A stretch of 64,000 nucleotides of DNA from an uncultured Alphaproteobacteria bacterium (GTDB lineage: Bacteria; Pseudomonadota; Alphaproteobacteria; Sphingomonadales; Sphingomonadaceae), in assembly GCA_903934325.1 (NCBI GenBank), contig CAIZNH010000008.1, forward strand, positions 1-64,000, read 5' to 3'. This document shows, piece by piece, positions 1,751 to 7,712 of the stretch. The number at the start of each line of letters is the position of its first letter. Positions within the stretch are counted from its first letter, which is position 1. The translations under genes were made by a program, and so were the position numbers. The notes under the pieces were generated by a model. It did not search any database and was not told the origin of the DNA. It saw only the letters and a list, made by a program, of their open reading frames with translations.

Positions 1751-2455
1751 TTATGGAGAAAATTTTTCTGGCACGCGCTCAGATAGCTGACTTCCTAGCA
1801 ATCTCTTTGCAAAATCTAGCGGCGCACGTTTTGCGTTTTCGGCGTTCATAAGGATGTCGAATACTATGCGGTCGTATGATTGCGATCCAACGGAACGATT
1901 GACCCGTTCCCTTATCTCCCGCATGTTTGTCGGCGTCGGATTAATCGGCCAATTCGATTTCTTAACCAACTTTGCGGCTTCAACAGTTGCAGGCCCAACA
2001 TACGGATATTTGCCTTCTTTCTTGAAATGAAGCACGCAGCATTGGGTTATCACGGCCAGTTGACCTTCGATAACTAATTGGCCGATAGATGCTGGAGGCG
2101 CCCCAGTCTTTGCCCTTCGCCCCTGCTGCAATAGCGGGTTTGAAGCGCCACGATCGACATCAATCATCGCCTCTGCAACCCCCGCTAACGGCTTCAAAAT
2201 GGCATGAGGGAAACCTTGCCCGGCGAAGAAGTCGATGGCGTGCAAAAGGGCATTATAAGCGCCAAGCCGACCGCCATCGCCCTGATGATCGAATATCGCT
2301 TTCGCAATTGCCAGCTGCACCTGAACCTCATTGAGCGCACTTTCGTAGGGCTGGGCCGCAGCAGACCTTGTTAGGAGGTCGGTCTGCAATTCTATCGTGC
2401 CATCACTATTTGGGCTTCGCACCGATTTTGTGACCTGCAGCTTGCGACCGCTCAT
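1751..2455 (-). CDS. Unknown protein following the integrase
   Basis: A 234-residue protein without a recognised domain. It has no signal peptide or transmembrane segment and appears mainly alpha-helical (LNEVQVQLAIAKAIFDHQ, VEAAKLVKKSNW, ending AKRLLGSQLSERVPEKFSP). The ATG at 2455 overlaps the integrase stop (ATGA, 2452-2455), so it is made from the integrase mRNA. An accessory role in integration, or a cargo function, is possible; nothing in the sequence decides between them. Confidence 0.6.
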   Translation of the reverse strand: MSGRKLQVTKSVRSPNSDGTIELQTDLLTRSAAAQPYESALNEVQVQLAIAKAIFDHQGDGGRLGAYNALLHAIDFFAGQGFPHAILKPLAGVAEAMIDVDRGASNPLLQQGRRAKTGAPPASIGQLVIEGQLAVITQCCVLHFKKEGKYPYVGPATVEAAKLVKKSNWPINPTPTNMREIRERVNRSVGSQSYDRIVFDILMNAENAKRAPLDFAKRLLGSQLSERVPEKFSP

Positions 2456-3696
2456 GCCGCACCTCGGATCATCTTCACGTTGTCACCAGCCACGGCACCG
2501 CCCGTGGCGCAATACGCAGCCCAATCGGCCATAAGCCGCCGCCGCTTCTCGAATAGATCGCCGCGCCGATAGGCCCGCTCCACGGCGTTGCTGATGGTAT
2601 GCGCCAGCGCCATCTCGGCAACCTCGTGCGAATAGCCGGTGCATTCCGCCGCCCAATCACGGAACGCGGACCTGAAACCGTGAACCGTAACGTCCTGATT
2701 CATGCGGCGAAGCAGCATCGCCATGGCCATGCCTGACAGCTTCTCCCTTTGCGCGCCGGGAAACAGGTATTTCCCGCCCAGCTGCTGCGTTTGCTCCAGT
2801 ATCGCCACCGCACGCGGGGACAGGGGAACTCGGTGCTCCTTGCCCGCCTTCATCCGCTCGGCTGGGATCGTCCAAACCGCCTTGGCCAGATCGACCTCGC
2901 TCCACTCGGCAGCGATTACCTCGCCGGTTCGTGCGGCGGTGAGAATGACAAACTCCAGCGCCAGTGCCGCAACCGCCTTGCGCTCTTGGAGCTGCTTCAC
3001 GAAGGCGGGGATCGCTTCATAGGGCATTGCCTTGTGATGGCCGCGTGACAGCTTCGTGCGGGCGGGGAGGATTTGCGCCAAGTGTCCGCGCCAGCGGGCG
3101 GGGTTTTCGCCCTGCCGGTATCCGCGCGCCTTGGCGCTATCGAGCACAGTTTCAATCCGGCCCCGCAACCGGCTGGCAGTCTCGGGAACCTCGCGCCAGA
3201 TCGGCTCCAGCACCTTGAGCACGTGCGGGGTATCGACCTCGGCAACCGGCAGATCGCCAATCACCGGATAGGCATAGTTCTTGAGGGTGTTTTCCCATTG
3301 CTGGCGGTGCTTGGCATTGCGCCAGCTTTCCTTGTTCGCCGCGATATGGGTTTCAGCCATCGCCTTGAAGGTAATTCCGGCGACCTTTGCCGCCTGCTCT
3401 GCCGCCTTCGCCTCGGCCTCGGAACGTTGCCGTTCCTCAAGCGGATCAATGCCCGCCTTGACCTTGAGGCGCAGCGCAGTCGCCAAATCGCGGGCATCGG
3501 CAAGCGATATGCCGCCCGGACCAGCCGGACCTAGGCCAAGGTCCCGCGACTTGCCCTTGAGCATGAACCGATAAACCCAAGAGCGCGCGCCTGTATCTTT
3601 CACGAGCAAGTGCAGCCCACCGCCATCGGCATGGCGCCCAGGCTTTGCATTCTTCACCGTCATTACCGTCAGTGCATTGTGAAGCTTACGCGGCAT
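2452..3696 (-). CDS. P4-type tyrosine site-specific integrase
   Basis: A 414-residue tyrosine recombinase. The N-terminus (LTVMTVKNAKPGRHADGGGL, then SWVYRFMLKGKSRDLGLG) is the DUF4102 arm-binding domain of P4-like integrases. The SAM-like core-binding domain follows at about residues 100-190. The catalytic domain carries ILTAARTGEV (first Arg), HGFRSAFRDWAAE (HxxR) and LAHTISNAVERAYRRGD (His and the Tyr nucleophile). The start at 3696 is fixed by a strong AGGAGG at 3702-3707, three bases upstream of the ATG. It integrates and, with an AlpA-like factor, excises the element. No tRNA is visible at the putative att end. Confidence 0.94.
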   Translation of the reverse strand: MPRKLHNALTVMTVKNAKPGRHADGGGLHLLVKDTGARSWVYRFMLKGKSRDLGLGPAGPGGISLADARDLATALRLKVKAGIDPLEERQRSEAEAKAAEQAAKVAGITFKAMAETHIAANKESWRNAKHRQQWENTLKNYAYPVIGDLPVAEVDTPHVLKVLEPIWREVPETASRLRGRIETVLDSAKARGYRQGENPARWRGHLAQILPARTKLSRGHHKAMPYEAIPAFVKQLQERKAVAALALEFVILTAARTGEVIAAEWSEVDLAKAVWTIPAERMKAGKEHRVPLSPRAVAILEQTQQLGGKYLFPGAQREKLSGMAMAMLLRRMNQDVTVHGFRSAFRDWAAECTGYSHEVAEMALAHTISNAVERAYRRGDLFEKRRRLMADWAAYCATGGAVAGDNVKMIRGAA

Positions 3697-3754
3697 CTGC
3701 CCTCCTATCGGGGAGCGCATCCGCCTAACGAAACAATTTGTCCGCCAAAGCTGT

Positions 3755-3810
3755 CGTTCCCACAAAAGCTCCCTGATGATAGCCCGGTTTTATGGGAACG
3801 CAATGGGACG
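3755..3810. repeat. Inverted and direct TGGGAACG-type repeats upstream of the integrase
   Basis: CGTTCCCA at 3755-3762 is an exact inverted copy of TGGGAACG at 3793-3800, and TGGGACG recurs at 3804-3810. Repeats of this kind next to a P4-type integrase start are candidates for arm-type integrase sites or for the edge of the att core. The partner att site is outside the window or not recognisable, so this remains a suggestion. Confidence 0.35.
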
Positions 3811-4140
3811 CTTTCGGACGGGTAGTGACGGAATCCCCTCTAGTAACCTAAATTCTCGAGGGTCGTGCGACTGCGGTGGGGTGCATTTGGACTATAGTTT
3901 GTAGGACACCCTCTCCGCCAACGCACCGAGTTGCGAAACAAACTGTCTCCCCCGACCATCGTCAGTGGGCATGACCTCTTGAAAACCGTTGAATTTCGGT
4001 TGCTTCTGAGCGGAATGGCTCTCCACTGCCGCTTCACCACCCACAGGCCGTGAGTTGGAAAAACCGCCCGCCTACCGAGAGCGCCACGAACTCTATCATT
4101 TGTCCGACAGCCTAAAGCCCCAGAAATCTGGCATTTTCAC

Positions 4141-4171
4141 CGACCGAACCCCTTCGTTCGAGGTTCGGTCG
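4141..4171. repeat. Perfect 10-base inverted repeat
   Basis: CGACCGAACC at 4141-4150 and GGTTCGGTCG at 4162-4171 are exact reverse complements separated by 11 bases. There is no T run after either side. It may be a protein-binding site or an RNA hairpin. Confidence 0.6.
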
Positions 4172-4199
4172 ACACGATGTTCTCGCTGTCTGCGACGAC

Positions 4200-4216
4200 C
4201 TACGCCACTGGCGTAG
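4200..4216. repeat. Perfect 8-base inverted repeat with one-base spacer
   Basis: CTACGCCA at 4200-4207 and TGGCGTAG at 4209-4216 are exact reverse complements around a single C. The near-zero spacer suits a dimeric DNA-binding protein better than an RNA hairpin. Confidence 0.55.
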
Positions 4217-4375
4217 CTCGGATCAAAAATGGCAGGCAGCGATCAAGCATCGGTCACAGTGATAAAAGGCCTTCAAGGCCAGGATCGCTCTTCCACTGCC
4301 ACAACCGCTCTAAATGCCCTCTGTCGGCAGGCACCGTGACGCGTGGCTCATTGCGACGCAATGGGGAGTTAGATG

Positions 4376-4408
4376 TTGCATAAATGCTATGTAGCATCTA
4401 TGCTACAT
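4376..4408 (+). promoter_or_regulatory. Promoter of the XRE gene with overlapping palindromic operators
   Basis: A -35 TTGCAT at 4376-4381 and a -10 TATGCT at 4399-4404 are 17 bases apart. Over them lie two nested palindromes made of the same unit: ATGCTA-TG-TAGCAT (4384-4397) and ATGTAGCAT-CT-ATGCTACAT (4389-4408), both perfect. The -10 box is inside the second palindrome, so a bound repressor would exclude RNA polymerase. Transcription would begin about seven bases after the -10 box, at or next to the ATG at 4411, which predicts a leaderless mRNA. Autoregulation by the downstream XRE protein is the natural reading. Confidence 0.7.
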
Positions 4409-4410
4409 TC

Positions 4411-4635
4411 ATGAGCCGTCCAAAAGAAGATGCCCTCTTCAACCGCATTGAGGTCTTGCGCATCGCGCAGGGCCTGTCCCGCCAGCAGTTGGCCGACGCG
4501 GTTGGGGTGCACTACCAGACGATCGGATACCTCGAACGTGGAGAGTACAGCCCAAGCCTGACGCTGGCGCTGCGCCTGTCCGAGGTGCTCGGACATCCGG
4601 TGGAATCCCTCTTCTCTGTACGGCCTTTCCAATAG
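4411..4635 (+). CDS. Small XRE-family transcriptional regulator
   Basis: A 74-residue protein that is almost only a lambda-repressor-type helix-turn-helix: RIEVLRIAQGLSRQQLADAV then GVHYQTIGYLERGEYSPSL. Short regulators of this group usually sit beside a small membrane protein gene, as here (4649), and control the pair. I start it at ATG 4411 because the promoter places the transcript start at that base and no ribosome site is present; an upstream ATG at 4384 would fall inside the operator. A later start at residue 11 is less likely because it would clip helix 1. Confidence 0.85.
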   Translation: MSRPKEDALFNRIEVLRIAQGLSRQQLADAVGVHYQTIGYLERGEYSPSLTLALRLSEVLGHPVESLFSVRPFQ

Positions 4636-4648
4636 GAAGGAGCATGCC

Positions 4649-5215
4649 ATGAAAGATGCAGATAAGGGCCCGAAGGATCGCTTCTACTGGCAAGAAGGCG
4701 TCACCCGTGGGGAAGTGGCGCGAGCTTTATCAGATCGTAGGTCGTCGCCCCTGCGTCGGCAGGGGCCCAGACGTCTGTTGGTGCTGAGCGCGGCTCTCGT
4801 GATGACGGCGTTGGCGCTCACAGTCTTAATCAACGACACTAAGTTTCGAACCTACTCGGAAGTTATCTTGATGGTGTTGGGATTGATCCTTTACGCATTC
4901 CTACGACAATCCGTTCGACTGATTTCTGAGGCACCGGACGAGTTACTCGATGAACGACAAATCGCCTTGCGCGATGCCAACTACAGTTTGGCCTATCGCA
5001 GCCTTGTCCCATTGATTTACGCATACGGCGCACTGCTGGCTGTGATCACGACAGGCGGTTGGTTGCACGACTACATTAACAGTCGCTTTTGGATGGGTAT
5101 TGCATTGTCGTACATCCTGTGCGGCGCAAGCCTCCCGGCGATGCTCTTAGCTTGGAACATGCCCAGCGAGCCTGAGGATGAGCCCTTTGAGCAGCTGGCA
5201 AACGATCCATCCTGA
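4649..5215 (+). CDS. Four-helix membrane protein paired with the XRE regulator
   Basis: A 188-residue protein with a basic, hydrophilic N-terminus of about 40 residues and four predicted membrane segments: near 43-62, 70-86, 117-136 and 148-168. Between the second and third lies DERQIALRDANY; a DERQ-type motif is common in membrane proteins encoded next to small XRE regulators. The ATG at 4649 follows AGGAAGGAG at the proper distance, 13 bases after the regulator stop, so the two form an operon. No enzymatic motif is seen; signalling or stress sensing is only a guess. Confidence 0.75.
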   Translation: MKDADKGPKDRFYWQEGVTRGEVARALSDRRSSPLRRQGPRRLLVLSAALVMTALALTVLINDTKFRTYSEVILMVLGLILYAFLRQSVRLISEAPDELLDERQIALRDANYSLAYRSLVPLIYAYGALLAVITTGGWLHDYINSRFWMGIALSYILCGASLPAMLLAWNMPSEPEDEPFEQLANDPS

Positions 5216-5277
5216 CCGTTGGCTGACGCGAATTCTTGCCGCTTTGCGCCCCTACGAATCTTAAGCGCAGAGCGTTA

Positions 5278-5706
5278 GTGAAAAAGCAGAGACGAACCCG
5301 AAGAGCGCTTCCGGTCAAAGTGAGAGTATCGGAAACTAACGACCTAAGCGCCAACATCCACCACGCCGAAGTTCGATCGGTAGACGTGACGACTATAAGG
5401 GCTAGGACGGGATTATCTCAGAGCGCCTTCGCCGCCAGCATTGGTGTGCCGGAAGGCACGCTTGTAAACTGGGAACAAGGTCGCCGACAGCCGTCTGGAC
5501 CGGCCAAGGTGCTACTCGCCTTGCTGGCGAAGAAGCCCAATCTCGTGATGGAGCTTTATCCTGCGGCACCGCCGAGGGTCAGATGGGTACCGGGACGTCC
5601 AGATCCCAACACCATGACCGCAGAGGAGAGATTGGCTGAAGTCGGGGAGATCTTGGCTGCTGGAATTATGCGAATGCAACCGACCCCCAGCTCCGAGCTT
5701 GGATAA
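5278..5706 (+). CDS. HigA-like XRE antitoxin without toxin, with unusual tail
   Basis: About 142 residues. The core, VTTIRARTGLSQSAFAASIG then GTLVNWEQGRRQPSGPAKVL, is the HigA/MqsA-type helix-turn-helix found in antitoxins that autoregulate toxin-antitoxin operons. No HigB/RelE-like gene precedes it; the membrane-protein gene ends 62 bases upstream. The last 26 residues (from TAEERLAEVGEILAAG) look like the N-terminus of small integrase-associated proteins of sphingomonads, so the gene may be a fusion. The start is uncertain: GTG 5278 is used, TTG 5236 and a later GTG near 5320 are alternatives, and none has a strong ribosome site. Confidence 0.6.
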   Translation: MKKQRRTRRALPVKVRVSETNDLSANIHHAEVRSVDVTTIRARTGLSQSAFAASIGVPEGTLVNWEQGRRQPSGPAKVLLALLAKKPNLVMELYPAAPPRVRWVPGRPDPNTMTAEERLAEVGEILAAGIMRMQPTPSSELG

Positions 5707-7574: not shown

Positions 7575-7712
7575 AGGCATACAATCGCGCTTTGGGCGCG
7601 AACATTTAAACATATAATATCAATAAGATAATGGAAAGAGAGTTCGTCCGCAGACGCTCACCCACCGCCAGTTATTGCACCTAATTCGACAAAACGGCGA
7701 TTTGGCGGGCCC

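What the first reader, a model, noticed from the sequence alone, without database searches (positions are those of the whole stretch)
4376..4411. Nested operator with leaderless transcription of a small XRE regulator
A 17-base-spaced promoter overlaps two perfect nested palindromes of the unit ATGCTA, and the predicted transcript start is the A of the ATG. No ribosome site is present. This is a tight autoregulatory switch with leaderless translation.
Basis: partly seen in the sequence, partly recalled or inferred. Interest (0 to 1): 0.6.

Follow-up and report, generated by a model that had tools for sequence, protein, structure and literature searches.

The report
Leaderless self-regulated XRE–membrane gene pair
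A 30-base DNA element just before a tiny regulator gene appears to be operator, promoter and transcription start all in one, so the regulator's message should begin at its own start codon; the same element is kept in front of the same two-gene module (regulator plus a four-helix membrane protein) in distantly related proteobacteria and actinobacteria.

Summary
Positions 4376-4405 hold four alternating 6-bp half-sites (TTGCAT, ATGCTA, TAGCAT, ATGCTA) on an 8-bp pitch. The outer units double as -35 (TTGCAT) and -10 (TATGCT), 17 bp apart. The start codon of a 74-aa CylR2-like XRE protein begins 6 nt after the -10. In 28 loci from beta-/gammaproteobacteria and actinobacteria the array is conserved while upstream flanks are not. 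The start codon lies 6-8 nt after the -10 in 27 of 28, without a Shine-Dalgarno; the partner gene has one. The exception moved its start codon 19 nt downstream and has a strong Shine-Dalgarno. A DNA-only scan of 350 genomes found 13 arrays: 12 at XRE starts (five in genomes not used before) and one before an ABC-2 exporter operon in a genome that has the pair. Best reading: an autorepressed, leaderless XRE plus LDER(Q/E) membrane-protein module, working like CylR1/CylR2, acquired horizontally. Leaderless self-regulated repressors are known (lambda cI, R-M controller proteins, AcuR); this operator, this membrane family and their combination are the new part. Binding, transcription start and the membrane protein's role are untested.

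The parts
4376..4405 (+). Operator array: four alternating 6-bp half-sites (4376-4381 TTGCAT, 4384-4389 ATGCTA, 4392-4397 TAGCAT, 4400-4405 ATGCTA) on an 8-bp pitch
   Evidence: operator-first scan
4373..4408 (+). Extended symmetric operator (17-bp arms around 4390.5); nucleotide homology with the nearest relative L017 begins at 4373
4376..4381 (+). -35-like hexamer TTGCAT, coincident with half-site 1; half-site position 2 is T in 23/28 loci although units 2-4 have A there in 80/84
4399..4404 (+). -10-like hexamer TATGCT, overlapping half-site 4; consensus TATRCT in relatives
4411..4411 (+). Predicted transcription start = A of the XRE start codon (leaderless)
   Evidence: start codon 6-8 nt after the -10 in 27/28 loci, no Shine-Dalgarno; not measured
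4411..4635 (+). 74-aa XRE/HTH_3 regulator, CylR2-like
   Evidence: PF01381 E 6.8e-14; CylR2 by sequence and by fold, TM 0.82/0.91
4634..4642 (+). Shine-Dalgarno AGGAAGGAG of the second gene
4649..5215 (+). 188-aa four-helix membrane protein with a conserved LDERQ motif in the loop predicted to be cytoplasmic; no Pfam, NCBIfam, PHROG or PADLOC family above threshold

Best explanation
Positions 4373-5215 are a self-contained two-gene regulatory module. The XRE protein is inferred to bind as two neighbouring dimers to the four-half-site array, which covers the -35, spacer and -10, and so shuts off its own promoter: negative autoregulation. When the promoter fires, transcription starts at or within about 3 nt of the XRE start codon, so the XRE message is leaderless and presumably translated weakly. 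The membrane protein gene downstream on the same transcript carries a strong Shine-Dalgarno, so the module should make little repressor and relatively more membrane partner. The membrane protein most likely controls the repressor (sequestering or releasing it in response to a membrane or extracellular signal) through its conserved cytoplasmic LDERQ loop, as proposed for CylR1/CylR2. Shown by comparison: the array, its fusion with promoter and start codon, its association with this XRE, the missing Shine-Dalgarno and the conserved membrane partner. Inferred: binding, repression, 5' end, relative dosage and the membrane protein's role (the last step about 60% likely on its own).
For: Array conserved in 28 loci (27 non-redundant) while upstream flanks are not. 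Start codon 6 nt after the -10 in 18, 7 in 7 and 8 in 2 of 28; the one outlier, L026, has a Shine-Dalgarno of -8.7 kcal/mol. Anti-Shine-Dalgarno energy: median +0.9 at XRE starts, -5.8 at partner starts, -2.2 at random positions; partner stronger in 24 of 25 pairs (loci are related, so the p-value is not taken at face value). Unit 1 departs from the half-site consensus towards TTG of a -35. DNA-only scan of 350 genomes: 13 sites, 12 at XRE starts (five of them in genomes not used before), one exact match before an ABC-2 operon in a genome with the pair; chance expectation about 0.6-2 hits at 60-55% GC. Recognition helix HYQT goes with TAGYA-type half-sites and NPQT with TTGTGTATACACAA-type operators. 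Membrane partners of both operator classes are homologous (hhalign 97%, E 2.7e-11). CylR2 is the closest solved relative by fold and among the closest by sequence. Precedents: AcuR, C proteins, leaderless mRNAs in Zymomonas.
Against: No wet-lab data. The promoter hexamers are weak by consensus. The 4376-4410 sequence is constrained by the operator, so a missing Shine-Dalgarno there follows partly from operator placement. An in-frame ATG at 4384 leaves an alternative 83-aa start, although it is out of frame or not a start codon in 12 of 28 loci. The membrane protein's role is inferred from gene pairing and analogy only.
Confidence: 0.8

Rival explanations
1. Leadered transcript: transcription starts upstream and the protein begins at ATG 4384 (83 aa), or is coupled to a short upstream ORF at 4373-4414 that overlaps the XRE start as ATGA; GGGGAG at 4363-4368 serves as Shine-Dalgarno.
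For: GGGGAG lies 4 nt before ATG 4373 and 15 nt before ATG 4384; the frame from 4384 is open; the 13-codon uORF stops at the XRE start.
Against: Only 3 of 28 loci have a uORF ending at the XRE start, 17 have no ATG there, and the 4384-equivalent is out of frame or not a start codon in 12 of 28. Sequence upstream of the operator, where a Shine-Dalgarno would lie, is not conserved.
Confidence: 0.1
2. The XRE also activates its own promoter at low dose and represses at high dose, as restriction-modification controller proteins do with tandem operators.
For: Tandem operator and leaderless start as in C proteins; C.AhdI and C.BclI are among the nearest folds.
Against: The array covers the -35 to -10 interval, leaving no free upstream dimer site to contact sigma; the SQE contact motif described for C proteins reads SRQ here.
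Confidence: 0.1
3. Toxin-antitoxin or defence pair: the membrane protein is an effector and the XRE its neutralising or regulatory antitoxin, on a mobile island.
For: Two-gene cassette next to an integrase; XRE folds include HipB and HigA; one relative hits a PADLOC 4TM effector at E 0.0056.
Against: No family hit for the window protein; modules occur at varied loci with different neighbours; a second operator copy before an ABC exporter in G207 fits regulation better.
Confidence: 0.1
4. Chance palindrome and promoter-like hexamers with no function.
For: Hexamers are poor consensus matches.
Against: Shuffles, cross-phylum conservation and operator-first scan.
Confidence: 0.01

Closest known systems
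CylR2/CylR1 (Enterococcus faecalis cytolysin regulators; PMC3709268, PDB 1utx)
   Same: Small stand-alone XRE of the same fold and length with a full-length profile match; paired with a multi-TM membrane protein thought to relay an extracellular signal.
   Different: CylR2 represses a divergent toxin operon from overlapping promoters; CylR1 has three predicted helices; no four-half-site array fused to a leaderless start is described in the source read; homology of the membrane proteins was not tested.
Restriction-modification controller (C) proteins, e.g. C.Csp231I (PMC4824078)
   Same: Small XRE autoregulator, two tandem palindromes at its own promoter, leaderless transcript, second gene on the same mRNA.
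   Different: Second gene is an endonuclease; the operator is placed so that low dose activates; SQE sigma-contact motif present there and absent here.
AcuR leaderless operon of Rhodobacter sphaeroides (PMC3017554)
   Same: Regulator-first operon in an alphaproteobacterium, self-repressed, transcript starts at the regulator's AUG, downstream genes have Shine-Dalgarno sites; similar layout in distant taxa.
   Different: TetR-family repressor induced by acrylate, enzyme genes downstream, different operator.
Lambda cI and Tn1721 tetR leaderless mRNAs (cited in PMC3017554)
   Same: Leaderless repressor mRNAs.
   Different: Different operator layout and partner genes.
LytTR Regulatory Systems HdrRM/BrsRM (PMC6193735)
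   Same: Two-gene operon of a DNA-binding regulator followed by a transmembrane inhibitor, autoregulated.
   Different: LytTR not XRE, positive feedback through direct repeats upstream of the -35, different membrane domains.

Membership tests
XRE / HTH_3 regulators | HTH_3 domain above the curated cut-off | tested here: met
   52.1 bits against a cut-off of 23
CylR2-like stand-alone XRE | About 66-74 aa, five helices plus short pairing of N- and C-terminal strands, full-length match | tested here: met
   profile E 9.5e-15 over residues 8-71; AlphaFold model pLDDT 91.6; Foldseek TM 0.82/0.91
CylR1/CylR2 two-protein system | Partner is an integral membrane protein encoded with it | tested here: met
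   four-helix model pLDDT 87.6; partner follows the XRE in nearly all array-bearing loci with enough sequence
CylR1/CylR2 two-protein system | Partner homologous to CylR1 | not tested
   CylR1 sequence was not fetched; the source reports three predicted helices, against four here
Leaderless mRNAs | 5' end at or within 5 nt of the start codon | not testable with these tools
   predicted from the -10 position in 27/28 loci; needs 5'-end mapping
Leaderless mRNAs | No Shine-Dalgarno, and fixed distance between -10 and start codon | tested here: met
R-M controller (C) proteins | Linked restriction/methyltransferase gene | tested here: not met
   partner is a membrane protein; no R-M gene evident beside it in the window or relatives
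R-M controller (C) proteins | SQE sigma-contact motif | tested here: not met
   SRQ at that place in the window and SRQ/SRK-type in relatives
Toxin-antitoxin / defence | Partner matches a known toxin or effector family | tested here: not met
   no hit for the window protein in Pfam, PADLOC or PHROGs, none above cut-off in NCBIfam

The most novel reading that the evidence does not exclude
XRE plus LDER(Q/E) four-helix membrane proteins form a widespread, undescribed class of membrane-controlled repressor module. Repressor dose is kept low by a hard-wired fusion of operator, promoter and leaderless start codon, and recognition helix and operator have co-diverged into at least two specificities. 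In some genomes the module also controls ABC-2 exporter operons in trans, which would point to sensing of membrane-active compounds.
Probability: 0.3. Interest if true: 0.65.

Novelty: new variant of a known kind. Interest (0 to 1): 0.5.

Why it matters
It gives a compact natural case in which operator, promoter and translation start are one object of about 40 bp kept across phyla, so the cost and benefit of leaderless translation for a repressor can be tested directly. It also gives a defined DNA motif by which an unannotated XRE/membrane-protein module and its trans targets can be found without protein searches.

Tried and rejected
Leader peptide/uORF at 4373 and alternative start at 4384: not conserved. 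Phage link: no full operator in 2.9 million viral contigs. Plasmid link: no membrane-protein relative in 72,556 plasmids and only more distant XREs. Known family or fold for the membrane protein: none. Fixed cargo beside the module: neighbours differ between loci. The weak second site in G204 (L108) before a hydrolase/ABC operon is compatible with chance (expected 0.1-0.7 per genome), so it is not counted. The 1-mismatch site at C6:20629 of the own genome has no array around it. A profile comparison with a single sphingomonad partner failed but succeeded with an alignment.

Full report
What is there. Positions 4376-4405 read TTGCAT aa ATGCTA tg TAGCAT ct ATGCTA: four 6-bp half-sites in alternating orientation, 8 bp apart, followed by cattc and the ATG at 4411. 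They overlap and lie within a longer inverted repeat, 4373-4389/4392-4408. The 20-bp palindrome with up to three mismatches is found twice in the window, both times here, against 0.02 expected from shuffles, and essentially only here in the 2.8-Mb genome. The hexamers TTGCAT and TATGCT are 17 bp apart, and the start codon's A is the seventh base after the -10. Neither hexamer is a strong consensus match, and the promoter scanner missed them, so the promoter claim stands or falls with conservation.

Comparative test of the array. Relatives of the 74-aa XRE protein were fetched from public genomes and from the window's own family. Twenty-eight loci including the window (27 after removing near-identical upstream regions), from Nitrosomonadaceae, Burkholderiales, gammaproteobacteria and actinobacteria such as Micrococcales, carry the same array before the XRE start. 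Information content is mostly 1-2 bits per column within the half-sites and about 0.1 in the 40 bases upstream. The four half-sites vary mainly at the same internal position (C/T in TAGCAT orientation), as expected if one protein reads them all. Half-site 1 differs in one telling way: its second base is T in 23 of 28, where the other three units have A in 80 of 84, which turns TAG into the TTG of a -35. The T that opens the -10 is also conserved although it falls in a spacer.

Leaderless start. The start codon begins 6 nt after the -10 in 18 loci, 7 nt in 7 and 8 nt in 2; two further loci show 9. The single exception, L026, has its start codon 19 nt further downstream and there has a strong Shine-Dalgarno (-8.7 kcal/mol). 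Elsewhere the XRE start has none (median +0.9), whereas the second gene has one (median -5.8; random positions -2.2), stronger than the XRE's in 24 of 25 pairs. The loci are related, so the paired p-value is not independent evidence of its size. An upstream ORF at 4373 and an alternative in-frame start at 4384 exist in the window but are not kept in relatives. Leaderless transcripts are documented in Zymomonas mobilis (119 TSS-gene pairs, PMC7566282), which to my knowledge belongs to the same order as the window's likely sphingomonad host. The 5' end itself was not measured.

Operator-first test. Searching for the array alone, up to three mismatches, in 200 genomes of one family and 150 of another gave 13 sites. 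Twelve lie directly before an XRE homologue (five of these genomes had not been seen before, the others overlap with the protein search). The thirteenth, an exact match to the degenerate pattern in G207, lies 30 nt before an ABC transporter ATPase gene followed by an ABC-2 permease gene, in a genome that also has the XRE pair. Chance expectation is about 0.6-2 sites at 60-55% GC for up to three mismatches and below 1e-4 for an exact match. A trans target is therefore likely in that genome. A weaker second site in G204 before a hydrolase/ABC operon is compatible with chance.

The proteins. The XRE protein is HTH_3. Its nearest solved relatives are CylR2 of Enterococcus faecalis and a Deinococcus PbsX-family protein, by sequence and by predicted fold (pLDDT 91.6; TM 0.82/0.91 to CylR2). 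The recognition helix is HYQT in all array-bearing proteins and NPQT (once NNQT) in sphingomonad relatives whose upstream palindrome is TTGTGTATACACAA-like: protein and operator change together. The downstream gene encodes a four-helix membrane protein (pLDDT 87.6) with invariant D29, R41, R90, D101, E102, R108, Y116, P163, A168. By helix order and the arginine-rich N-terminus (inference), the LDERQ loop faces the cytoplasm. It has no Pfam, NCBIfam, PHROG or PADLOC family and no PDB fold, but it is homologous to the partners of the sphingomonad class. Flanking genes differ between loci, so the module is XRE plus membrane protein only. Nucleotide homology to the closest relative runs from 4373 to 5181, that is, from the operator's edge to near the end of the second gene.

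Context. The pair sits in accessory DNA (GC about 0.56 against 0.64 in the flanking core) right of a tyrosine integrase gene. Core synteny with a same-species genome resumes at 7711 with 99% identity. That genome lacks the array. There, sequences matching window 3913-4249 and 5346-5679 stand about 60 bp apart behind an intact tRNA-Ser, so the pair is absent from that arrangement. Only the window's own genome among 100 of the genus has the array, and the closest proteins are betaproteobacterial: horizontal acquisition.

How it most likely works. XRE dimers covering -35 to -10 must block RNA polymerase, so the simplest reading is autorepression. The SQE sigma-contact motif of C proteins reads SRQ here, and no free upstream site exists, which argues against self-activation. 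With a leaderless first gene and a Shine-Dalgarno on the second, little repressor and more membrane protein should be made; for AcuR such an imbalance was measured (PMC3017554). The membrane protein is then the natural signal input, as proposed for CylR1 (PMC3709268) and shown genetically for LytTR systems (PMC6193735). This last step is analogy.

Known or new. Leaderless autoregulators (lambda cI, C proteins, AcuR) and XRE/membrane pairs (CylR1/CylR2) are known kinds. I found no description of this operator, of this membrane family, or of their strict fusion with a leaderless start across phyla. The paper searches were limited and most subscription journals are not held.

Noticed in passing
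2452-3921: P4-type tyrosine integrase gene (minus strand) followed at 3913-3920 by CTCCGCCA, matching the 3' end of tRNA-Ser; a same-species genome has an intact tRNA-Ser(GGA) followed by the same downstream DNA. Probable island attachment site.
   Followed up: partly
3913-4249: Segment repeated at two further places in the same-species genome G659 (95% and 73%), at least one of them behind tRNA-Ser.
   Followed up: partly
5236-5706: HTH gene related to NadS/MqsA-type antitoxins without an evident toxin beside it; 82% similar copy in G659.
   Followed up: no
L107:1673-1702 (G207:C41:6172-6201): Exact copy of the four-half-site array before an ABC-2 exporter operon with a 30-nt leader: a candidate trans target.
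   Followed up: partly
L008-L016 upstream of the XRE start: Second operator class, TTGTGTATACACAA-like, with recognition helix NPQT and a homologous membrane partner; also no evident Shine-Dalgarno at several starts.
   Followed up: partly
L027-L053 (Pseudonocardia, Modestobacter and relatives): Third layout: GTAGTA..TTTGCTAC running directly into ATG, so the operator-like palindrome abuts the start codon itself.
   Followed up: no
G000:C41:84405-84587 and C39:21727-21915 (L002, L004): Two other small XRE genes in the same genome that appear to follow, rather than precede, a membrane-protein-like reading frame.
   Followed up: no
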